Below are positions 28,696-38,046 of a DNA stretch of 64,000 nt, one piece after another (position 1 is the first letter of the stretch; the number at the start of each line of letters is the position of its first letter). This DNA comes from Eubacteriales bacterium mix99. GTDB taxonomy: Bacteria; Bacillota; Clostridia; Caldicoprobacterales; DTU083. The notes beneath the pieces are model-generated. The model saw nothing but the letters and a program-made list of their open reading frames with translations, was not told the DNA's origin and made no database searches. The stretch covers positions 2,326,500-2,390,499 of the forward strand of contig CP121690.1 of NCBI GenBank assembly GCA_038396605.1, in the 5' to 3' direction. The position numbers and the translations under genes were made by a program.

Positions 28696-29273
28696 GTAAG
28701 ATACTTTTCTTTTTGGCGGTTGTTCTGATGATATATTTCCTGTTTGGCAGGGTATGGATCAAACATATGAGATATCCTCTGAAATTTGAGGAGGAGATTA
28801 AGACCTATTCCGAAAAGTATTCGGTGGATCCCTATATGGTGGCGTCCATTATCTGGGCAGAAAGCAGGTTTCTCCCGGATGCTGTTTCCGGAAAGGATGC
28901 CAGGGGATTGATGCAGCTTCTGCCAGGTACCGCGGTGTGGGCAGCAGGGAAAATGGGCCTGTCGGAGTTTGAGGAAGCCATGCTCCTGGATCCGGAGATG
29001 AACATCCGGATTGGCTGTTGGTATCTGAAATTTTTGTCTTCGCAGTTTCCTGACAACGAGGAGCTGGTCCTCGCAGCATATAACGGAGGAATTGGAAATG
29101 TGCAGGAATGGCTGAAGGATAAAACCTACAGCGGAGATGGATGTCGGCTGGATCACATTCCTTTTCAGGAGACGCGGGATTATGTCCTGAAAGTAAAGAA
29201 TGCCTGTAAAATCTATCGGGAAACATATCCCTCGTTGGGCTCATCGTCCAATCGGAAAGGATCCAATCAATGA
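28659..29273 (+). CDS. Membrane-anchored lytic transglycosylase (Slt type)
   Basis: The 204-residue protein has one N-terminal membrane helix (about 11-31) and an external SLT domain that cleaves peptidoglycan glycan strands. The catalytic glutamate is in IIWAESRF (about 68), followed by GLMQLLPGTA and the AAYNGGIGNVQ motif. It begins inside coaE and overlaps the next lipoprotein gene by four bases, so all three are likely co-translated. In polA-coaE contexts such enzymes are common in Clostridia, but the purpose of the link is unknown. Confidence 0.88.
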   Translation: MRTPKRSRTAVISKILFFLAVVLMIYFLFGRVWIKHMRYPLKFEEEIKTYSEKYSVDPYMVASIIWAESRFLPDAVSGKDARGLMQLLPGTAVWAAGKMGLSEFEEAMLLDPEMNIRIGCWYLKFLSSQFPDNEELVLAAYNGGIGNVQEWLKDKTYSGDGCRLDHIPFQETRDYVLKVKNACKIYRETYPSLGSSSNRKGSNQ

Positions 29274-30943
29274 AAAGAGTATTGTCCTGTCTTTTGATAT
29301 TGCTTTTTCTTTTTCTCACGCCGGGCTGTGACACGGGCGGTGGAGCCCCCTCTGCTTCCCCGGATGCAAGCGCAAAGCCGAAGGAAACAGCGACTCCCAC
29401 TCCGTCTCCCCAAATGGGCGGGGAGTTGAAGGTTCCGCTGATGGCACCGGATTCCTTTAATCCTTTGCTGACACAGTCCAGGGATATTCTGAACTTTCTG
29501 AACCTTATTTTTGAGCACCCCCTTGTACTGGACGAAAAGTCCAGGCCGGCCCCTTCCCTGGTGGAAAAATGGGAAGTTTCCGAGGATGGAAGGACCTGGA
29601 CCTTTCATGTCCGAAAGGATGTAAAATGGCAGAATGGACAGGCAATGACCGGGGAAGACATTCTTTTCACCTTTCAGGCACTTCAAAGCGGGAAGCTTGG
29701 TTCCTTATATGAAAAGGATCTGGCAGGCAATGTCAATATTGTGGAAGCCGGTCTGCGCAACAATGATCCCTATACCTTTTTTGTCCGCCTGGCCGAACCA
29801 TCCAGTGAGGTTCTGGACATTATGACTTTTCCGGTCCTTTCAAAAAATGTGTATCAATCCCCGGAACTCATGCAGAAGGAAAAGGGAAATTTCTCCATGA
29901 CTCCGATTGGGACAGGACCTTATCAGGTGGATCTCAGCCAGCCGTACAATGGGACCTCCATGAAGCTGGTTCGCAATGAGGACTGGTGGAATGGCAAACC
30001 TTACATTGATTCGATTCTCGCAAGAGTCTGTCAGACGAACGAGGAAGCAAGAGCCGCCCTCGGAAAAGGGGAAATTGATCTTGTGGACACCATGGCCGTT
30101 TATGCCAATAACTATTCGGATCTCGATAAAATCACCGGATATAAGTATCTGACCGAAAACTATGAATTCCTGGCGTTGAATTGCAATAACCCGCTGTTCG
30201 CGGACAAGAATGTCCGAAAGGCAATTGCCTATGCCATTGACCGGACGGATATCATATCCAGGGTGTATCTGAACAATGCAGAAACGGTTGACGTGCCCAT
30301 GCCATCCAATTCCTGGCTCTATGACAGTGCATACCGGATCTATGATTATGATGAGAAACGCGCGGCCAAATTGCTGAAGGAAGCCGGATGGACGGATTCC
30401 GACGGAGACGGCGTACTGGATAAAATAGTGGAGGGAGAGAAACAGGATCTGGCTTTTACGATTCTTACCAACAGTGATAACGATTTCCGAAGGGATGTGG
30501 CAGAGCTGATCAGCAAGCATCTGTCCCTGGTCGGGTTCCGGGTACAGACGGAAGCGGTGAGCTGGGAGCAGCTTCAGAGCGAGAATATGCAAAAGCATAA
30601 ATTCGATGCCATATTGACCGGTTATTATCTGGATTATGTTCCGGACCTGCGTTTTGCTTTTCACTCCTCGCAGATTGGAAAAGGAAAGAACAACTTCTAC
30701 CGCTATCAGAATCCGGAGCTTGACAGCCTTTTGGATACGGCAGCAACAGCATATAAGGAAAAGGATAAGAAGAAAGCCTATCAAAAGATACAGGAACATC
30801 TGGTGGGGGAGCTTCCGGTGATCAGTCTGTATTTTCGTACCGGGTCCCTGTTGGTCAATAACCGGGTTCATGGTGTGGACAAAGTCCGGGAATTGAATCT
30901 GTACAATAATATCAAAGACTGGTATCTTGTGAACGAAAAATAA
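29270..30943 (+). CDS. Extracellular solute-binding lipoprotein, family 5 (peptide type)
   Basis: The 557-residue lipoprotein has a signal peptide ending in the lipobox LTPGC (Cys about 20), a Ser/Pro/Thr-rich linker and then an SBP-bac-5 fold (LNLIFEHPLVLDEKSRPAPSLVEKWEVSEDGRTWTFHVRKDVKWQNG). Such proteins capture peptides, nickel or oligosaccharides for an ABC importer. No permease or ATPase is adjacent; the ATPases at the left edge are 28 kb away. The ATGA overlap with the transglycosylase suggests a role linked to cell-wall turnover, for example recovery of muropeptides, but this is inference. Confidence 0.88.
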   Translation: MKRVLSCLLILLFLFLTPGCDTGGGAPSASPDASAKPKETATPTPSPQMGGELKVPLMAPDSFNPLLTQSRDILNFLNLIFEHPLVLDEKSRPAPSLVEKWEVSEDGRTWTFHVRKDVKWQNGQAMTGEDILFTFQALQSGKLGSLYEKDLAGNVNIVEAGLRNNDPYTFFVRLAEPSSEVLDIMTFPVLSKNVYQSPELMQKEKGNFSMTPIGTGPYQVDLSQPYNGTSMKLVRNEDWWNGKPYIDSILARVCQTNEEARAALGKGEIDLVDTMAVYANNYSDLDKITGYKYLTENYEFLALNCNNPLFADKNVRKAIAYAIDRTDIISRVYLNNAETVDVPMPSNSWLYDSAYRIYDYDEKRAAKLLKEAGWTDSDGDGVLDKIVEGEKQDLAFTILTNSDNDFRRDVAELISKHLSLVGFRVQTEAVSWEQLQSENMQKHKFDAILTGYYLDYVPDLRFAFHSSQIGKGKNNFYRYQNPELDSLLDTAATAYKEKDKKKAYQKIQEHLVGELPVISLYFRTGSLLVNNRVHGVDKVRELNLYNNIKDWYLVNEK

Positions 30944-30999
30944 AGAGAATTTGTTTGGACACACAGGATGCCGGGCCGGGGAAAGAATGGATTTTTTTC

Positions 31000-31027
31000 T
31001 TGACAATCCGCCGGACTATGCTATAAT
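31000..31027 (+). promoter_or_regulatory. Promoter of tRNA-Leu(GAG)
   Basis: TTGACA at 31000-31005, 16 bases, TATAAT at 31022-31027: both hexamers perfect. Confidence 0.8.
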
Positions 31028-31036
31028 GTTTGTTGT

Positions 31037-31059
31037 GGCTTTTCAGAGAATGAAAAGCC
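31037..31059 (+). repeat. Hairpin in the tRNA leader
   Basis: GGCTTTTCA pairs perfectly with TGAAAAGCC over GAGAA, between the promoter and the tRNA 5' end. No T-run follows, so it is not an intrinsic terminator; it may be a processing element of the pre-tRNA. Confidence 0.55.
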
Positions 31060-31079
31060 CATCGTATTGTTTATCATAT

Positions 31080-31163
31080 GCGAGAGTGCTGGAATAGGCA
31101 GACAGGCACGTTTGAGGGGCGTGTGTCCATGACGTACGGGTTCAAGTCCCGTCTCTCGCACCA
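31080..31163 (+). tRNA. tRNA-Leu (anticodon GAG)
   Basis: Acceptor GCGAGAG pairs with CTCTCGC, followed by A and encoded CCA. The anticodon stem CACGT/GCGTG encloses TTGAGGG, giving GAG. A long variable arm and GGTTCAAGTCC T-arm complete a leucine tRNA. The accessory island begins about 250 bases downstream. Confidence 0.95.
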
Positions 31164-31172
31164 AACCAATAT

Positions 31173-31222
31173 AATCCGAACCTTTTTCCGATAGGAGATG
31201 GGTTCGGATTTGTTGTTTTCTT
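31173..31222 (+). terminator. Terminator of tRNA-Leu(GAG)
   Basis: AATCCGAACC pairs with GGTTCGGATT over an 18-base loop and is followed by TGTTGTTTTCTT. Confidence 0.7.
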
Positions 31223-31378
31223 CGAGTATTCGTTTTTCCCAAACGGGGTGAAACAAAGGCTGGAGTCGAAACCGAGAGGGCCGAGGAAGAAACGCAAAAA
31301 CACGATTTCCTAGCGGCTGAGGATGGGAATATCAGGTGCCATGGATTAGAACACAATACAAAACAGGAGGATATGACC

Positions 31379-31420
31379 ATGAAAAACGCGCTTTCCTGTC
31401 TTTTAAAAATTAAAAGATAA
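31379..31420 (+). CDS. 13-codon orphan reading frame, probably a severed gene start
   Basis: ATG 31379 has a perfect AGGAGG eight bases upstream, yet the frame (MKNALSCLLKIKR) stops after 13 codons. The sequence looks like the cytosolic start of a membrane protein, not a finished product. The base composition changes just after it. I read it as the head of a host gene cut off at the edge of the accessory island; a leader peptide is the alternative. The 150 bases before it hold no other gene that I can see. Confidence 0.35.
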   Translation: MKNALSCLLKIKR

Positions 31421-31434
31421 TTTAGCGGTCATAA

Positions 31435-31493
31435 TTGACACGCCGGGTTGACTGTGGTAGACTTAATTTATACGGTCGACTAAGGTAGACTAA
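31435..31493 (+). promoter_or_regulatory. Promoter and triple operator of the blaI-like gene
   Basis: TTGACA (31435-31440), 17 bases, TAGACT (31458-31463). The 10-mer GGTAGACTTA/GGTCGACTAA/GGTAGACTAA occurs at 31456, 31474 and 31484, covering the -10 and start point, as expected for autorepression. Confidence 0.55.
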
Positions 31494-31512
31494 AGCCAAG
31501 GAGAATTAATAA

Positions 31513-31875
31513 ATGGAAACACCCAAAATATTTGAAACGGAATACCGTTTTTGCTGCATCATATGGGAGCATGAGCCGATAAACAGCGGTGAACTCGTTC
31601 AATTAGCGGCCAGAGAACTCGGATGGAAAAAATCCACGACCTATACAATTATCAAACGGCTTTGCGAGCGCGGCGTTCTGAAAAGCGAGGATGCTATAAT
31701 CACTTCCCTGTACTCTAAGGAAGAAATACAGCGTCAGGAAAGCCGGGAGTTTCTCGATAAAACCTTTAATGGTTCTCTGCCGGCGTTCCTGGCCGCGTTT
31801 GCGGACGGTAAATCCTTATCGGTACAGGATGTTGCCGAGATTCGGAAGATGATCGACAACTATGAGGTCAAATAA
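31513..31875 (+). CDS. BlaI/MecI/CopY-family repressor
   Basis: The 120-residue product is a winged-helix repressor of the BlaI family: RFCCIIWEHEPINSGELVQ, then the recognition region WKKSTTYTIIKRLCERGVL, with a dimerising C-terminal tail. BlaI proteins repress antibiotic-response genes until cleaved after a signal from a BlaR1 partner, which here is the next gene. AAGGAG lies nine bases ahead of the ATG. Three GGTAGACTAA-type repeats lie over its promoter. No beta-lactamase gene is present beside it, so the regulated target may be the pair itself. Confidence 0.9.
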   Translation: METPKIFETEYRFCCIIWEHEPINSGELVQLAARELGWKKSTTYTIIKRLCERGVLKSEDAIITSLYSKEEIQRQESREFLDKTFNGSLPAFLAAFADGKSLSVQDVAEIRKMIDNYEVK

Positions 31876-31876
31876 T

Positions 31877-34252
31877 ATGCGACTGGAAGAATTGTTTGTT
31901 AATCTTCTCAACATGAGCATCACGGCAGGCTATGTGGTAGTCGCGGTCATCCTCCTGCGGCTGCTGCTTAGGAAAGCGCCCAGATGGATTTCCTGCGCCC
32001 TTTGGGCGCTGGTTGGACTGCGGCTTATACTGCCGTTTTCGTTTGAAAGCGTCATGAGCCTGATCCCAAGTTCTACTACCGTCACGCCAGATATCCTGTA
32101 TTCAGGGGAACCGGCCATCAGCAGCGGCATTCCCACTGTAAACAGCGTCGTCAATCCGACGATTGCGGGATCTTTGACTCCGGCAGTGACGGATAGTGCC
32201 AATCCCATGCAGATCGTCATGACAATTGCAGGAATTGTATGGCTCGCCGGAATGCTTGTGATGATGCTCTACAGCGCCATTACCTATGTCAGACTGCGCC
32301 GAAAGGTCGATTCCGCTATTCTTTTCAAAGATAATATTTATGAGAGCGACGCGATATCGTTCCCATTTGTCCTGGGTATCATAAAGCCACGGATCTACCT
32401 GCCCTTTGCCGTCGGCGAAGAGGACAGAAACTATGTCGTTTCTCATGAACAGGCCCACATCCGAAGGAAAGATCACTGGATAAAGCCTTTCGGTTTTCTG
32501 CTCTTGACGGTTTATTGGTTCAATCCACTGATGTGGGTGGCTTACGTCCTGCTGTGCCGGGATATCGAGGTTGCCTGTGACGAAACCGTCATAAAAGATA
32601 TTGGCGTCAATGAAAAGAAAGCTTATTCCCTCGCGCTGCTGGGCTGTGCAGTCAAGCGCCGAAACATTGCGATGTGTCCGTTGGCGTTTGGTGAAGTAGG
32701 CATCAAAGAAAGAGTGAAAAATGTGCTAAATTATAAGAAACCAGCTTTCTGGATCATTATAGTAGCGGTCATAGCTTGCATAGTCGCCGGGATATGCCTG
32801 CTGTCCAATCCAAAAGAGAAGGCTAACACATCCTATGAGCACCCCAATGCGGAGCAGCTTTTTGAGTACCGTACCGCTTATGTTGGAGATAATTCAGCTG
32901 TCGGAAATATAATCAGCCTTCTGGAGTTTCCGACCGACGTCAAGTATGACCATATTGAACTGAAAACAAGCGCTGAGCCTTACGGCGTCGATGTATATTT
33001 CAGCGTAACGCCCGAAGTCAAGGCCGCCTATAACACATCGGAACCGGATCATATCGACGTTTTCCAAGAGAATGCCTGCATTATGTTTTCTCTGATTGGA
33101 AACGCAGACAAGGTCACGTTCCGCCTGGACGATGGTACTGGAAATCCCGCTGACATGCAATTTACCCGCGATTGGGTGGAAAGCATTGTCGGCGCGGATT
33201 TGTGGTCGGAAAGCGACTCCGCAGAAAAGCTGGACAGTCTGATTACGCAAATCAATGAACATGTAAAAAGCGCCTATGCTTCCGCTGCGGAGGATATATC
33301 CACGGGCCCATTTGTGGAGTATGTGAAAGACACAAACACGGGCCCTTTTGACGTTTACACGAAAGAGAACGGAACCTATATTATGAGCCTGCCCATGTCG
33401 TTATTTAATGATTTTCCAGCAAATCACTGGGAACCGGGTTGGATGAATGCCGATGTCTACTGCGGCTCGATTGATAATTTCACATGGGCGGTGGTTTGTA
33501 CCGGGCCCTCAGCCGGAACTGGAAACGAAAATGTCTGCACCTCGTCGGACGGCGGAAAGACCTGGTGGGTCGGAGACCGCTCCGCAATGTACTCCGGAAC
33601 GGTGACCGGCGCCGGTTTTGCCTCTTCCAAAGTCGGCTTTATGAGTTACCGCTACTTTGTTGACCACGGGCCAGAAATCAGCCGCACGCTTGACGGCGGA
33701 AAAACATGGAGCCGTATGACGGTGGATATCCCTGATTATCTGAAGGAATACAGGATGACGCCCCTCGTTCCCACGTTCACCGGAAACTCTGGCATCTACC
33801 CGATTGAGCTCTATGACAACGACGGCAATACCTCCACGGCCTATCTCGCAACGGAAGACGGCGGGATGACTTGGCAATGGAAAGGCAGCGCTCTGGACGA
33901 AGCCGTCAGATCGGCCTTTCTAAAGGATAACCAGACGGGTTATCTCAGCGGAGAGTGTGCCGGAGAAGGTCACATTCTTCTCGGACAGAAAGAAAAATCA
34001 GGAATTATAACAGTCTATGTCCTTACCATGTACGGTGAATACGGCTTTGAGGACGGGAATTTCGTGAAAGTTTCGGGTAGTGGTATTATTCCCGCCGTAT
34101 TCACGTTTACGTATTCAGACGGCGGCCTTGTTTGTACGAAAATCGAATATCCGGAAGATGGCCAAGATATGGGGACTCCATCAGAAAATTGTTCCCGTCC
34201 GAATACAGGAGTAGGGCTTTATCTCCTTCGGACGGCGACAAGCAGAATTTAA
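31877..34252 (+). CDS. BlaR1-like M56 metallopeptidase with large external region, frameshifted near the end
   Basis: The reading frame encodes 791 residues. The first 300 hold four membrane helices and the M56 zinc site HEQAH (about 194-198) with the downstream ACDE motif, as in BlaR1/MecR1. A fourth helix near 295-312 leads outside to domains unlike a penicillin-binding sensor, including repeats of the Asp-box type (SSDGGKTWW, TLDGGKTW, TEDGGMTWQW). The frame leaves the conserved path near 34165-34175: the continuation lies in the -1 frame to 34608, consistent with one lost base. ATG 31877 is used, GAGG nine bases upstream. It forms a pair with the blaI-like gene. Confidence 0.8.
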   Translation: MRLEELFVNLLNMSITAGYVVVAVILLRLLLRKAPRWISCALWALVGLRLILPFSFESVMSLIPSSTTVTPDILYSGEPAISSGIPTVNSVVNPTIAGSLTPAVTDSANPMQIVMTIAGIVWLAGMLVMMLYSAITYVRLRRKVDSAILFKDNIYESDAISFPFVLGIIKPRIYLPFAVGEEDRNYVVSHEQAHIRRKDHWIKPFGFLLLTVYWFNPLMWVAYVLLCRDIEVACDETVIKDIGVNEKKAYSLALLGCAVKRRNIAMCPLAFGEVGIKERVKNVLNYKKPAFWIIIVAVIACIVAGICLLSNPKEKANTSYEHPNAEQLFEYRTAYVGDNSAVGNIISLLEFPTDVKYDHIELKTSAEPYGVDVYFSVTPEVKAAYNTSEPDHIDVFQENACIMFSLIGNADKVTFRLDDGTGNPADMQFTRDWVESIVGADLWSESDSAEKLDSLITQINEHVKSAYASAAEDISTGPFVEYVKDTNTGPFDVYTKENGTYIMSLPMSLFNDFPANHWEPGWMNADVYCGSIDNFTWAVVCTGPSAGTGNENVCTSSDGGKTWWVGDRSAMYSGTVTGAGFASSKVGFMSYRYFVDHGPEISRTLDGGKTWSRMTVDIPDYLKEYRMTPLVPTFTGNSGIYPIELYDNDGNTSTAYLATEDGGMTWQWKGSALDEAVRSAFLKDNQTGYLSGECAGEGHILLGQKEKSGIITVYVLTMYGEYGFEDGNFVKVSGSGIIPAVFTFTYSDGGLVCTKIEYPEDGQDMGTPSENCSRPNTGVGLYLLRTATSRI

Positions 34253-34608
34253 AGTCCCAGGAACGCTCGTATGCGGCAAGCTATATGAAGAAAATCGGCA
34301 GAGATGCGGTGATAGGTGATTACGGTGACTTTGAACATACGTTGCTTACCGATGTCGGCGTTTCCGTTGATGTGTCGAATAGTATCAACGACAAGTTATT
34401 TGCCAATTATCCCATGTGGATTGGCAACCGTGAGGCATTGGAGAATGGGGTGCGCTATGTATATGAAAAGACTTATAACAAGGCGGCTCACGAAATTGTT
34501 TTTACGATATACGAATATGATGCAAACAAAATCGTTGAACGCACCCGGCTGGATTCCATTACAGGCAAAATAACCGAAACGACAAATTACCCAGACAAAC
34601 AGGAATAG
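34170..34608 (+). pseudogene. Out-of-frame C-terminal domain of the BlaR1-like gene
   Basis: From TAT at about 34170 the -1 frame reads YGDSIRKLFPSEYRSRALS and goes on for about 145 codons with normal protein composition (ERSYAASYMKKIGRDAVIGD, ANYPMWIGNREALENG) to TAG 34606. It has no SD or start of its own. It fits as the lost end of the upstream gene, cut off by a single-base deletion, perhaps in the GGGG run at 34172-34175. Sequencing error is an alternative. Confidence 0.65.
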
Positions 34609-34800
34609 TCGTCTGGATAAAAGTTGCCAGGAATCAGAATGTGATCGAGTCATTGATGAACTGACCCGGCAACTCGCAAACCTCTCCGTTCAGTGGAACA
34701 AAGGCCAACTTAAAAAATATTTATAAATAAATCAATATCTTATGTCTATTGCGGGTTGAACAATATCCGATTATTTGCCATACTACTGTGTAGCTTTAAT
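34609..34800 (+). other. Spacer with a possible short gene remnant
   Basis: One frame ending at TAA near 34727 reads DRVIDELTRQLANLSVQWNK, which is protein-like but lacks a start and is not recognised. Nothing else is supported here. Confidence 0.25.
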
Positions 34801-34813
34801 TGGAGGTCTTGAT

Positions 34814-35155
34814 ATGGAAATTGTGAGCCAAAGACTACGTGCGCTACGTGAAAGCGTGGGGCTTTCTCAGAATAAACTTGCCGGTATGATCGGAGTTCGC
34901 CAGTCCAGCATTAACCGTTATGAAAACGGACAGTCGGTTCCCTCCATTCAAACTTTTCGCTGGTATGCGGATTACTTTGATGTGTCAATGGATTACATCT
35001 TTGGACGGACGGACAAGCCGCAAGGCAAGCTTTATAATTACGAACCGCAACTCATACGCGATAAGGCCGAAAATAATCAGGAACTGCGACAGTTCGTTTT
35101 GGAGAGGCATGGTCACGAGAAAAAAGCTGTGTCGAATTTGCAAGCGACTGCCTGA
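34814..35155 (+). CDS. XRE-family regulator whose C-terminus reads into a foreign remnant
   Basis: The N-terminal 65 residues are a clear Cro/C1-type helix-turn-helix (QRLRALRESVGLSQNKLAGM, then RQSSINRYENGQSVPS), followed by the FDVSMDYIFGRTDKP segment common in Firmicutes XRE proteins. ATG 34814 has GGAGG nine bases upstream. From about 35097 the DNA belongs, in another frame, to an acetyltransferase tail, so the last 19 residues (from about LERHGHEKKA) are probably accidental. The protein may still fold because the DNA-binding domain is intact. It opens the mosaic acetyltransferase region. Confidence 0.8.
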   Translation: MEIVSQRLRALRESVGLSQNKLAGMIGVRQSSINRYENGQSVPSIQTFRWYADYFDVSMDYIFGRTDKPQGKLYNYEPQLIRDKAENNQELRQFVLERHGHEKKAVSNLQATA

Positions 35156-35241
35156 TTGGCAACACGGAGAGCCTCGCTTTTCATTTGAAGATCGGGTTTG
35201 AAGAAGCAGGGCGAACCATTCACTTTGTAAAAAGGCTATAG
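35101..35241 (+). pseudogene. C-terminal remnant of an AAC(6')-like acetyltransferase
   Basis: In the frame starting GGA 35101 the 46 codons before TAG 35239 include EFASDCLIGNTESLAFHLK and GFEEAGRTIHFVKRL. The pattern EFASD-x4-NT-x-S-x3-H-x3-GFEE-x2-R-x3-F-x-K is the end of AAC(6')-type aminoglycoside acetyltransferases of the GNAT family. The first two thirds are missing and there is no start. The XRE frame overlaps it in a different phase, so a deletion has joined the two genes. Confidence 0.65.
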
Positions 35242-35255
35242 GAAGGATACTCAAA

Positions 35256-36098
35256 ATGACAAACGCTGATATATTGCGCATTGCGATGGAACAGCATGCG
35301 ATAGATGCAAACTGTTCGCCCAATGATTTTACAAAAACGGAAAATGTCGTTGTTATCTCTAAGCCAAATGAAAAAGCACGAAGATACTTGAACTTGCCGT
35401 TTTTCTGTGACCTTATTACATACGGTTCAAATATCGTCGCTTCCGTTGACGAGCGAGTTTATGACTTTGTGAAGCTATATATAGATACGAAGTATCCACA
35501 TGGCTGCTTTGAGATGCCACAGATACACCATCTGACAAACGAATTTGTCAAATACGGTTTTTTACCGTATTACCAAGCAGAATACTGGTTGCCGGATGTT
35601 GACGTGGTAAAAGCACTTTCGTGCAAATATGAAATGCGGCTATTAGAACGACATGATTTTGCCGATTTGTATCTGCCGGAGTGGAGCAACGCACTGTCCT
35701 CAACGCGGCCGCATTTAGATATGCTTGGCGTCGGCGCGTATGATGGCGATAGATTAATCGGTCTTTCCGGCTGCTCCGCTGATTGTGAAACCATGTGGCA
35801 AATTGGAATTGATGTTTTGCCGGAGTATCGCCGGCAGGGTGTTGCCGCAGCTTTGACTTCCCAATTGGCAGTTGAAGTGTTTAAAAGAGAAAAGGTTCCG
35901 TTTTACTGCTGTGCGTGGTCAAATCTCGGCTCCGTGCGAAACGCTATCAAAAGCGGATTTCGTCCGGCATGGGTAGAGCATACAGCCATTGAAAAAGAAA
36001 AGGCATTAGAATGGAATGCGAATAAGCATTTTTCTAAATTGATAACGAATAACACCGATTTTTGGTCTGCCATAGATAAACTTGTATCTGAATCCTAA
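35256..36098 (+). CDS. GNAT-family N-acetyltransferase (two-part, 280 residues)
   Basis: This gene appears intact. The C-terminal half has the acetyl-CoA motif VLPEYRRQGVAAALTSQLA (about 190-208) and the NLGSVRNAIKSGFRPAW segment typical of GNAT enzymes; the N-terminal half (about 1-120) is a less conserved domain. Substrate is unknown. GGAAGGA lies eight bases ahead of the ATG. Its stop TAA is directly followed, in the same frame, by the pyrophosphatase-like remnant, so the 3' flank is a join. Confidence 0.8.
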   Translation: MTNADILRIAMEQHAIDANCSPNDFTKTENVVVISKPNEKARRYLNLPFFCDLITYGSNIVASVDERVYDFVKLYIDTKYPHGCFEMPQIHHLTNEFVKYGFLPYYQAEYWLPDVDVVKALSCKYEMRLLERHDFADLYLPEWSNALSSTRPHLDMLGVGAYDGDRLIGLSGCSADCETMWQIGIDVLPEYRRQGVAAALTSQLAVEVFKREKVPFYCCAWSNLGSVRNAIKSGFRPAWVEHTAIEKEKALEWNANKHFSKLITNNTDFWSAIDKLVSES

Positions 36099-36394
36099 AT
36101 CATCATCGACCGCCCAAAAGGCAGTCATCAACCGAAATATCCGACATTGATATATCCTGTCGACTACGGCTATCTCGAAAACACCTCCTCGATGGACGGC
36201 GGCGGGATTGACGTTTGGAAAAGCACTGATGGCAATGCAGTTGATGCTATCATCTGCACTGTGGGTTTGATGAAAAGGGACAGCGAATTAAAATCCTCAT
36301 CGGGTGTAGTGAGGAAGAAAAGCAGCTTGTTTTGGAAGTCCATAACAACAGCGAACACATGAAGGGCATTCTGATACGGAGGAGTGTAGAATGA
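36099..36394 (+). pseudogene. Headless, frameshifted pyrophosphatase-like remnant
   Basis: Starting at ATC 36099, directly after the GNAT stop, the frame reads IIIDRPKGSHQPKYPTLIYP then VDYGYLENTSSMDGGGIDVW, matching the small inorganic-pyrophosphatase-like family (DRP-GS-HP, YPVDYGY). At about 36288 the family pattern moves to the next frame (IKILIGCSEEEKQLVLEVHN) and runs to TGA 36392. Restoring one A in GCGAATTAAAA would mend it. The start codon is missing, so the piece is dead. Confidence 0.6.
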
Positions 36395-36783
36395 GAATTG
36401 CAATGGTCGAACTGCCGGATGAAATAACGGCAATCACGCTAGAAATAATGCACGCGCTTCCCGCTTGGTTCAGTCCCCCCGGGGACATAGACCGCAAAGC
36501 CATTATACATAGAGACTACCCTTTCTTTGCGGCATACAACGGAGACGAGCCTGTTGGATTCATAGCGTTGAAAATACACAATCCTTACACAGCAGAAGTT
36601 TTCAATATGGGTATTTTGGAAGCATATCATCGGCAGGGTGTTGGAAGCAAATTGATGCAAGTCGTCGAACGGTACTGCAAGGATAACGGCTATCTGTATT
36701 TGACGGTGAAAACACTTGATGAGTACGTTAGGCGAGGGAGAATTGGATTTGCAAAAATATCTTCATTTAGCGGAAAACCATAA
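36391..36783 (+). CDS. GNAT-family acetyltransferase, truncated and fused to foreign sequence
   Basis: The first 108 residues are a normal small GNAT domain (ITLEIMHALPAWFSPPGDID, YNGDEPVGFIALKIHN, acetyl-CoA motif ILEAYHRQGVGSKLM, then YLYLTVKTLD). From about 36720 the expected C-terminal strands are absent and the frame reads EYVRRGRIGFAKISSFSGKP, which is another gene's tail in the wrong frame. GGAGGAG lies seven bases ahead of the ATG. The catalytic core lacks its last strands, so activity is doubtful. Confidence 0.65.
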   Translation: MRIAMVELPDEITAITLEIMHALPAWFSPPGDIDRKAIIHRDYPFFAAYNGDEPVGFIALKIHNPYTAEVFNMGILEAYHRQGVGSKLMQVVERYCKDNGYLYLTVKTLDEYVRRGRIGFAKISSFSGKP

Positions 36784-36865
36784 TTGCCGCATCGTCTTGG
36801 AGGTAAAGACCATCGAAGGATTGCGGCGCTCAGTGGAGTGGCTGAAAGAGAGGAGTTTGAAATGA
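36719..36865 (+). pseudogene. C-terminal remnant of a sugar-phosphate isomerase/epimerase-like gene
   Basis: The frame containing ATG 36719 reads LGEGELDLQKYLHLAENHNC then RIVLEVKTIEGLRRSVEWLKER and stops at TGA 36863. The GEG-x-LDL and LEVKT patterns are typical of the end of xylose-isomerase-like TIM barrels. The rest of the barrel is missing. It overlaps the truncated GNAT gene out of frame, and the next gene starts at its stop (ATGA). Confidence 0.5.
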
Positions 36866-37227
36866 TAGCATATCATGGAAGCGTAATGCAGGGGATTTCG
36901 GTTCTAAAACCGTTTGCAAATCCCATTTCAAGTTTAGACTATGCTGCAGTTTATTTAACTACATACAAACCTCTTGCCTCAATATATATTTGGGACAAGC
37001 CATACAAATGGATGAATTATGGCTTTTCCGAAGAGGGAGTGCCGATATATACAGAATCAAAAATTCTGATTTATATCAGCTCGGCAGTAAAATTGCCAAA
37101 GAAGCATTTGATTCCTATTTCGGGCAGGAACTTCTCGGCGACAGCCACACAGCAGGGTGCTACATCCGGTTGTGGCAGTATTGCGAAGAAGTGGGAGCAA
37201 CAGATATGTTTGACCTTGCGAAGCTGA
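36862..37227 (+). pseudogene. DUF3990-like N-terminus joined out of frame to another gene
   Basis: ATG 36862 with GAGAGGAG six bases upstream opens a good frame for about 62 codons (MIAYHGSVMQGISVLKPF, YAAVYLTTYKPLASIYIW, KWMNYGFSEEGVPIYTES), resembling DUF3990-type proteins of Clostridia, which are about 150 residues. After 37050 the frame loses protein character and ends at 37227, while a different coding tail runs in the +2 frame. This is a broken gene head. Confidence 0.55.
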
Positions 37228-37262
37228 AAGAACGCTTGCGGGAGCAGGTTCTGAGTTCCTGA
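37049..37262 (+). pseudogene. Unidentified gene tail at the right end of the island
   Basis: From about 37049 the frame reads KNSDLYQLGSKIAKEAFDSY, FGQELLGDSHTAGCYIRLWQ and YCEEVGATDMFDLAKLKERL, ending at TGA 37260. The composition is that of a real protein C-terminus, but I do not recognise it and it has no start. It continues out of frame from the DUF3990-like head. Confidence 0.5.
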
Positions 37263-37327
37263 ATAAAATGAGTCGGCACGGGCAAGATAATGGCACTCAA
37301 AAATGACGGACCGAACAGGTGATTTTT

Positions 37328-37690
37328 TTGAAAAAGAGATTCTATCAGCTGAAAATTATTTTGATGGGCATCCTGACCGGGTTATGCAATGGTCTGTTTG
37401 GTGCCGGCGGGGGAATGATTGTTGTACCATCCATGGTGCATTTCCTGGATGTGGATGAACATGATGCCCATGCGACGGCCATAGCTGTGATCCTGCCTCT
37501 GGCTGTCATCAGCGCCTTCATCTATTTCCGGAACGGATATCTGGATTTTGGGAAAGCACTGCCGGTTGCCGCCGGAGGAATTCTGGGTGGATTTACGGGC
37601 GCATATCTCCTTCACCGTGTATCCTCCTATTGGCTGCAAAAGATATTCGCGCTGTTTATGATTGTAGCCGCCGTAAGGATGATTTTCTGA
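37328..37690 (+). CDS. Half-size TauE/SafE-family membrane protein (first of pair)
   Basis: The 120-residue product equals one half of a TauE/SafE anion exporter: four helices with the repeat motif GLCNGLFGAGGGMIVVPSMV (about 18-37). Full-size family members contain two such halves. The SD AGGTGA favours TTG 37328 over GTG 37319. The stop overlaps the likely start of the second half (CTGA). The pair probably forms one transporter; the substrate (sulfite, sulfonate or another organic anion) is unknown. This gene marks the return to host-like sequence. Confidence 0.8.
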   Translation: MKKRFYQLKIILMGILTGLCNGLFGAGGGMIVVPSMVHFLDVDEHDAHATAIAVILPLAVISAFIYFRNGYLDFGKALPVAAGGILGGFTGAYLLHRVSSYWLQKIFALFMIVAAVRMIF

Positions 37691-38046
37691 AGCTGCTTTT
37701 GTTTGCAATCGGATTGGTGTCCGGCGTAGTCAGCGGAATGGGGATTGGAGGAGGAACCGTTCTGATTCCGGCGATGATATTTCTGGCAGGCGTGTCCCAG
37801 CACAGTGCTCAGGGGATTAACCTTACTGTCTTTATCCCCACGGCATTGGTTGCGATTTGTGTACACAGCAAGAACAAACATATACGATTCCGACTGGCTC
37901 TCCCTCTGATGCTGGCAGGGGCGTTCGGTGCCGTTCTGGGTTCCATTCTGGCTTCTTCCATGCCTTCTCGGCTTCTTGGAAAATTGTTCGGGGGATTTTT
38001 GCTGGGAATGGGCTTATACGAACTATTCCGAAAAAAGAAGAGTTAA
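37687..38046 (+). CDS. Half-size TauE/SafE-family membrane protein (second of pair)
   Basis: About 119 residues, with the second-half repeat motif GVVSGMGIGGGTVLIPAMIF and three further helices. The start is uncertain: AAGGAT sits six bases ahead of CTG 37687, which overlaps the preceding stop as CTGA; TTG 37699 is the nearest standard start. Such adjacent half-genes are known in Clostridia, so this is read as a natural pair and not as a frameshift of a full-length gene. Confidence 0.75.
   Translation: MKLLLFAIGLVSGVVSGMGIGGGTVLIPAMIFLAGVSQHSAQGINLTVFIPTALVAICVHSKNKHIRFRLALPLMLAGAFGAVLGSILASSMPSRLLGKLFGGFLLGMGLYELFRKKKS

What the first reader, a model, noticed from the sequence alone, without database searches (positions are those of the whole stretch)
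31379..37262. Mosaic, decaying accessory island beside tRNA-Leu(GAG)
Within 6 kb nearly every gene is broken: a frameshifted BlaR1-like gene, four places where the coding part of one gene runs straight into a piece of another in a different frame, and a headless frameshifted piece. All pieces point the same way and several are acetyltransferases. This fits an acquired resistance-type island worn down by repeated internal deletions. An assembly artefact must also be considered.
Basis: partly seen in the sequence, partly recalled or inferred. Interest (0 to 1): 0.7.

Follow-up and report, generated by a model that had tools for sequence, protein, structure and literature searches.

The report
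Decaying accessory gene island beside tRNA-Leu
A 6-kb stretch of acquired same-direction genes (sensor, regulator and acetyltransferase genes) beside a leucine tRNA is being worn down by internal deletions and point lesions, and the intact parents of nearly every broken piece can be found in related gut bacteria; it is an ordinary process caught unusually clearly.

Summary
Between tRNA-Leu(GAG) and a TauE/SafE permease gene pair the window carries about 6.1 kb that is absent or replaced by other cargo in relatives. Parents were identified for nearly all pieces. Truncating joins are at ~35100 (XRE regulator | AAC(6') tail), ~36725 (GNAT | TIM-barrel tail), ~37058 (189-aa protein | inner part of a 305-aa protein) and 37250/37251 (that piece | core flank). 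The BlaR1-like gene is one gene with one frameshift. BlaI and the GNAT domain are intact. Natural gene spacings survive between the joins, so the best reading is deletion within a co-directional array. A related genome shows the same process with the parent preserved: a 1.0-kb deletion joins the same GNAT gene to the last codons of a HAD gene that follows it intact elsewhere. Assembly error is unlikely but reads were not available. Ordinary island decay, well documented; lineage-specific domain fusions are a mild extra.

The parts
31080..31163 (+). tRNA-Leu(GAG), left border of the island
   Evidence: ARAGORN; same tRNA followed by the same permease genes in relatives
31164..31224 (+). tRNA-downstream terminator-like hairpin; 61 bases also found in gut phage/host records
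   Evidence: inverted repeat 31173-31210; 87-90% matches in phage records
31513..31875 (+). BlaI-type repressor, intact (120 aa)
   Evidence: Pfam Penicillinase_R 3.8e-21, 10-115 of protein; full-length homologues
31862..34608 (+). BlaR1-like M56 peptidase with DUF4825 and C-terminal domains; one gene, one frameshift at ~34162-34168
   Evidence: Pfam M56 2.2e-51, DUF4825 2.8e-25; proteins L183-L187 align on both sides of the frameshift
34802..35098 (+). 5' three quarters of an XRE regulator (residues 1-98 of ~127)
   Evidence: nearly all homologues end their match here
35098..35107 (.). join 1: XRE gene | AAC(6')-like gene, out of frame
35107..35241 (+). last ~45 codons of an AAC(6')-like acetyltransferase
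   Evidence: NCBIfam AAC_6p_group_E 2.8e-17, profile 90-140 of 140; L056 has the intact gene directly before the same GNAT gene
35256..36389 (+). GNAT + pyrophosphatase-like two-domain gene (E-F); GNAT half intact, TAA at 36096-36098, frameshift near 36280-36290
   Evidence: intact single frames in L098, L099, L102, L103; DNA match over the whole unit
36391..36723 (+). 5' part of a second GNAT gene (G; residues 1-110 of ~157)
36721..36728 (.). join 2: GNAT gene | TIM-barrel gene, out of frame
36728..36865 (+). last ~45 codons of a xylose-isomerase-like TIM-barrel gene (H)
   Evidence: 59% to the C-terminus of L103:11520-12308, which is Pfam AP_endonuc_2
36862..37059 (+). first ~65 codons of a 189-aa protein of unknown family (I); its ATG overlaps the previous stop
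   Evidence: L094; matches in G232, G100, G042 stop at the same point
37056..37062 (.). join 3: 189-aa protein gene | 305-aa protein gene, out of frame
37059..37250 (+). inner piece of a 305-aa protein (J), both ends missing
   Evidence: 66% and 63% to L088 and L091
37250..37251 (.). join 4: island | core flank
   Evidence: homology to the same-genus genome G001 (91%) starts at 37251; homology of the 305-aa protein stops at about 37250
37319..38046 (+). TauE/SafE-type permease gene pair, right border (core)
   Evidence: Pfam TauE on the G001 copy; conserved in relatives

Best explanation
This is an acquired, co-directional array of accessory enzyme and regulator genes placed in a turnover hotspot between tRNA-Leu(GAG) and a permease gene pair, now decaying. 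Unselected deletions with ends inside genes joined the front of one gene to the back of another at three internal places and cut the last gene at the core border. Three further point lesions (a frameshift in the BlaR1-like gene; a stop codon and a frameshift in the pyrophosphatase-like half of a two-domain GNAT gene) broke others. BlaI and the GNAT half may still work. Shown: the parents, the joins, the lesions, the absence from relatives and a parallel deletion with its parent. Inferred: that deletion, rather than insertion of fragments, made these particular joins, and that short repeats guided them.
For: Relatives lack the island or hold other cargo at the site. Parents of the pieces align up to the joins and no homologue crosses any of them. 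Natural neighbours survive inside blocks: AAC(6')-like gene before the same GNAT in L056, 1-base spacing F-G, ATG/TGA overlap H-I. The island's broken state stands out against intact flanks. Codon fit is lower than core for 11 of 12 pieces, though most individual tests are weak. dN/dS of the GNAT half is ~0.05 where it could be estimated and that of the broken half 0.07-0.17 against intact homologues, similar to intact pairs, so the breaks look recent (dS near saturation). Parallel: L122 matches L098 on both sides of a 1001-bp deletion that joins the same GNAT gene to the last ~27 codons of the HAD gene that follows it intact in L098.
Against: No sequenced relative found here holds the uninterrupted ancestral version of this exact array, so sizes and order of the deletions are unknown. 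Parents of the cut genes are 50-66% identical proteins, too distant to read short repeats at the joins. No integrase or attachment repeats were found, so the means of arrival is unknown.
Confidence: 0.85

Rival explanations
1. Assembly or sequencing artefact: the joins and frameshifts are not in the genome.
For: Reads were not available; the genome's sequencing method is unknown, and long-read-only assemblies carry indel errors.
Against: The genome is one 3.13-Mb contig, and no piece has a second copy in it that could cause a wrong join. The rest of the window is ORF-dense. The right edge coincides with the point where a same-genus genome becomes homologous. The same kind of join occurs independently in L122.
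Confidence: 0.07
2. Capture of short foreign DNA fragments joined end to end (for instance after uptake of degraded DNA), rather than deletion inside an array.
For: Each piece is from a different gene and no parental array is known for the whole set.
Against: All blocks have one orientation (five or six blocks, 1/16 to 1/32 by chance), natural gene spacings survive between joins, and the TIM-barrel parent lies downstream of the same GNAT gene in one array in L103.
Confidence: 0.06
3. A cassette array moved by a site-specific system (integron-like), with the joins as recombination points.
For: Co-directional accessory enzyme genes, several acetyltransferases.
Against: Joins lie inside coding sequence at unrelated places; F-G and H-I are separated by 1 base or overlap, leaving no room for recombination sites; no recombinase was recognised in the island.
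Confidence: 0.02

Closest known systems
tRNA-adjacent genomic islands / accessory hotspots
   Same: Cargo between conserved genes next to a tRNA gene, variable between relatives; such sites concentrate recently acquired genes (PMC3415099)
   Different: No integrase, no duplicated tRNA end, most cargo broken
Clustered decay of recently acquired genes, as described in Rickettsia (PMC2374718)
   Different: Decay here is seen at one locus of an otherwise intact window, and pieces are fused at sharp joins
BlaI/BlaR1 (MecI/MecR1) repressor-sensor pairs
   Same: BlaI-type repressor followed by an M56 membrane peptidase
   Different: The C-terminal part is not a penicillin-binding domain; score far below the curated BlaR1 cut-off
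AAC(6') aminoglycoside acetyltransferases
   Same: The 35107-35241 tail matches the last ~50 positions of AAC(6') models
   Different: Only the tail remains, so no activity is expected

Membership tests
tRNA-associated genomic island | located at a tRNA gene, absent from relatives at the same site | tested here: met
tRNA-associated genomic island | integrase gene | tested here: not met
   no integrase among the Pfam/NCBIfam assignments of the island pieces
tRNA-associated genomic island | repeat of the tRNA 3' end at the far border | tested here: not met
   no such repeat in 30900-37800
tRNA-associated genomic island | atypical composition | tested here: inconclusive
   GC near flanks; codon fit lower than core for 11 of 12 pieces, few individually strong
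BlaR1 beta-lactam sensor | M56 peptidase domain after a BlaI gene | tested here: met
BlaR1 beta-lactam sensor | match above the curated BlaR1 model cut-off | tested here: not met
   92.8 bits against a cut-off of 400
integron cassette array | integrase and recombination sites at gene borders | tested here: not met
   no spacing between genes F-G and H-I, joins inside genes, no recombinase; attC was not searched with a dedicated model
pseudogenes (truncation, frameshift, nonsense) | disrupted frame relative to intact homologues | tested here: met

The most novel reading that the evidence does not exclude
Co-directional accessory-enzyme arrays in these gut Oscillospiraceae and relatives act as a source of new multidomain enzymes: deletions between neighbouring genes, guided by short repeats, usually leave wrecks like this one but sometimes fuse genes in frame. 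The same pyrophosphatase-like domain is fused to two different GNATs (this gene; L069), the same GNAT is fused to another GNAT in L125, and GNAT-NUDIX, nucleotidyltransferase-APH and GNAT-HIT fusions occur in sister arrays. The two halves of the gene also appear to have different histories (weak support for one half). No control set was tested.
Probability: 0.2. Interest if true: 0.5.

Novelty: new member of a known kind. Interest (0 to 1): 0.3.

Why it matters
It is a clean, parent-by-parent dissection of how an acquired gene array is erased, with a before/after deletion in a sister genome. It also corrects an annotation trap: a two-domain gene with a stop codon reads as a gene plus a headless fragment. 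The recurrence of in-frame fusions in the same kind of array hints that the erasing process may occasionally make new enzymes, which could be tested by a survey.

Tried and rejected
AlphaFold of the intact two-domain homologue (4-row alignment) gave mean pLDDT 42.5, unusable, so no fold search was run. DNA searches of plasmids and phages gave only short partial matches to the island. A search for composite ORFs was confounded by broken copies of the GNAT gene itself and only confirmed that most of its homologues are ~255-270 aa without the second domain. An automated search for deletion pairs gave 16 rows; only the L122/L098 pair was examined and shown to join gene interiors, the others were not checked one by one. 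The stretch 34609-34801, between the BlaR1-like gene and the XRE piece, gave no convincing homologue. Own-genome paralogues as a source of the pieces: none by DNA. Solved structures for the 305-aa protein and the pyrophosphatase-like domain: none by sequence. Literature searches for this exact pattern returned nothing specific.

Full report
Setting. The window lies in a genome held as one contig of 3,132,933 bases. The island runs from the end of tRNA-Leu(GAG) (31163) to 37250. To the left is a gene for a substrate-binding lipoprotein-like protein (29270-30943), to the right a TauE/SafE-type permease gene pair and an RnfC-like gene (the RnfC-like and lipoprotein names are from the sequences and my own knowledge, not tested). 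In family relatives G002, G003, G004, G010 and G011 the same tRNA is followed by the same permease after 150-400 bases; in G005 a symporter-like gene sits between them; in the same-genus genome G001 more than 8 kb of unrelated cargo (ABC transporters, DUF1048 and PadR genes, an FMN oxidoreductase) ends where window homology begins, at 37251. The site is therefore a turnover hotspot. No integrase and no repeat of the tRNA end at the far border were found, so how cargo arrives is unknown.

Piece by piece. (A) 31513-31875 is an intact BlaI-type repressor. (B) 31862-34608 is a BlaR1-like M56 peptidase with DUF4825 and further C-terminal domains. Proteins such as L183-L187 align to 33887-34168 in one frame and on from 34168 in another, so it is a single gene with one frameshift. 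Its BlaR1 score is far below the curated cut-off. (D) 34802-35098 is residues 1-98 of an XRE regulator of about 127 aa. (D2) 35107-35241 is the last ~45 codons of an AAC(6')-like gene. In L056 an intact AAC(6')-like gene stands directly before the same GNAT gene as here, with a similar short spacer. (E-F) 35256-36389 is one gene. In L098, L099, L102 and L103 it is a single frame of 377-392 aa: a PF12746-type GNAT followed by a short domain resembling inorganic pyrophosphatase (the resemblance is weak, E about 0.001). DNA identity runs across both halves in L099, L102 and L103. In the window a TAA stands at 36096-36098 in the frame shared by both halves, and a frameshift follows near 36280-36290. 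(G) 36391-36723 is residues 1-110 of a ~157-aa GNAT. (H) 36728-36865 is the C-terminus of a xylose-isomerase-like TIM-barrel protein, whose intact relative lies in the same array as the E-F gene in L103. (I) 36862-37059 is the start of a 189-aa protein of unknown family. Its start codon overlaps the stop of H, so H and I look like natural neighbours. (J) 37059-37250 is an inner piece of a 305-aa protein of unknown family.

What made it. Four sharp joins exist: D|D2, G|H, I|J and J|core. No homologue found crosses any of them, and the three internal ones all change frame. Natural spacing survives between them, and all blocks point the same way. Deletion inside a longer co-directional array explains all of this with the fewest assumptions. 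The process is seen directly elsewhere: L122 (a termite-gut Oscillospiraceae MAG by its isolate name, an inference; the same sequence is in L040 from genome G110) matches L098 at 82% over 573 bases and then at 85% over 79 bases, skipping 1001 bases. This joins the same GNAT gene to the last ~27 codons of a HAD-family gene that stands intact behind it in L098. The window's gene and the L098 HAD gene share a similar short stretch at that place (GCCAT-A/T-GA), which suggests but does not prove repeat-guided deletion. A further GNAT gene in L122 (2859-3151) is also cut down, and the E copy there lacks its front at the edge next to an oppositely directed gene.

Timing and selection. The GNAT half shows dN/dS near 0.05 in the comparisons where dS could be estimated (L098, L102). 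The broken half is not clearly raised (0.07 against L099, 0.11 against L102, 0.17 against L103, compared with 0.06-0.18 among intact pairs). Synonymous distances are near saturation, so this says only that the breaks are recent relative to the divergence. Codon fit to the core is lower for 11 of 12 pieces; only the M56 piece falls below all sampled core segments.

Is it an artefact? ORFs of 150 aa or more cover 94% and 85% of the flanks and 59% of the island, so general sequencing error is not the cause. The pieces have no second copies in the genome that could mislead an assembler. The right edge coincides with an independent genome's homology edge. Reads were not available, so a residual doubt of about 7% is kept.

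Wider note. In most of the 80 named-genome loci the E gene is a free-standing ~255-270-aa GNAT. The pyrophosphatase-like domain is attached to it in a few genomes, to the G-type GNAT in L069, and stands alone elsewhere. In L125 the E gene is fused to another GNAT. Sister arrays hold GNAT-NUDIX, nucleotidyltransferase-APH and GNAT-HIT fusions. Trees of the two halves place L098 differently (second half: L098 with L103 and L079, 97% support; first half: window next to L098, weak support). That deletions in such arrays occasionally create new enzymes is a fair hypothesis but was not tested against a control.

Verdict. It is a decaying accessory island, a known kind of object, here dissected to its parents. 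Interest is modest.

Noticed in passing
31164-31224: The tRNA-downstream hairpin region (61 bases) matches Faecalibacterium phage FP_Toutatis (87%) and several human-gut phage records (up to 90%), two of which also include the tRNA 3' end; it may be part of a phage attachment site or simply a shared terminator.
   Followed up: partly
31425-31512: Upstream of the BlaI gene there are repeated GTAGACTWA-like words overlapping promoter-like hexamers, possibly a BlaI operator.
   Followed up: no
31379-31420: A Shine-Dalgarno-like sequence followed by a 13-codon ORF that stops at once; possibly the start of another lost gene.
   Followed up: no
L022:1-8100: The same-genus genome G001 carries a different cargo of more than 8 kb at the same site (two ABC transporter sets, DUF1048 pair with PadR, FMN oxidoreductase), ending at the same border.
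   Followed up: partly
L103:8001-15056: A Clostridiales MAG has a long co-directional array: GNAT-pyrophosphatase-like gene, AadA-like nucleotidyltransferase, LD-carboxypeptidase-like gene, TIM barrel, an Rpn-like protein, a (p)ppGpp-synthetase-like gene and a GNAT fusion.
   Followed up: partly
37319-38046: The TauE/SafE permease is encoded as two adjacent half-size genes in this genus.
   Followed up: no
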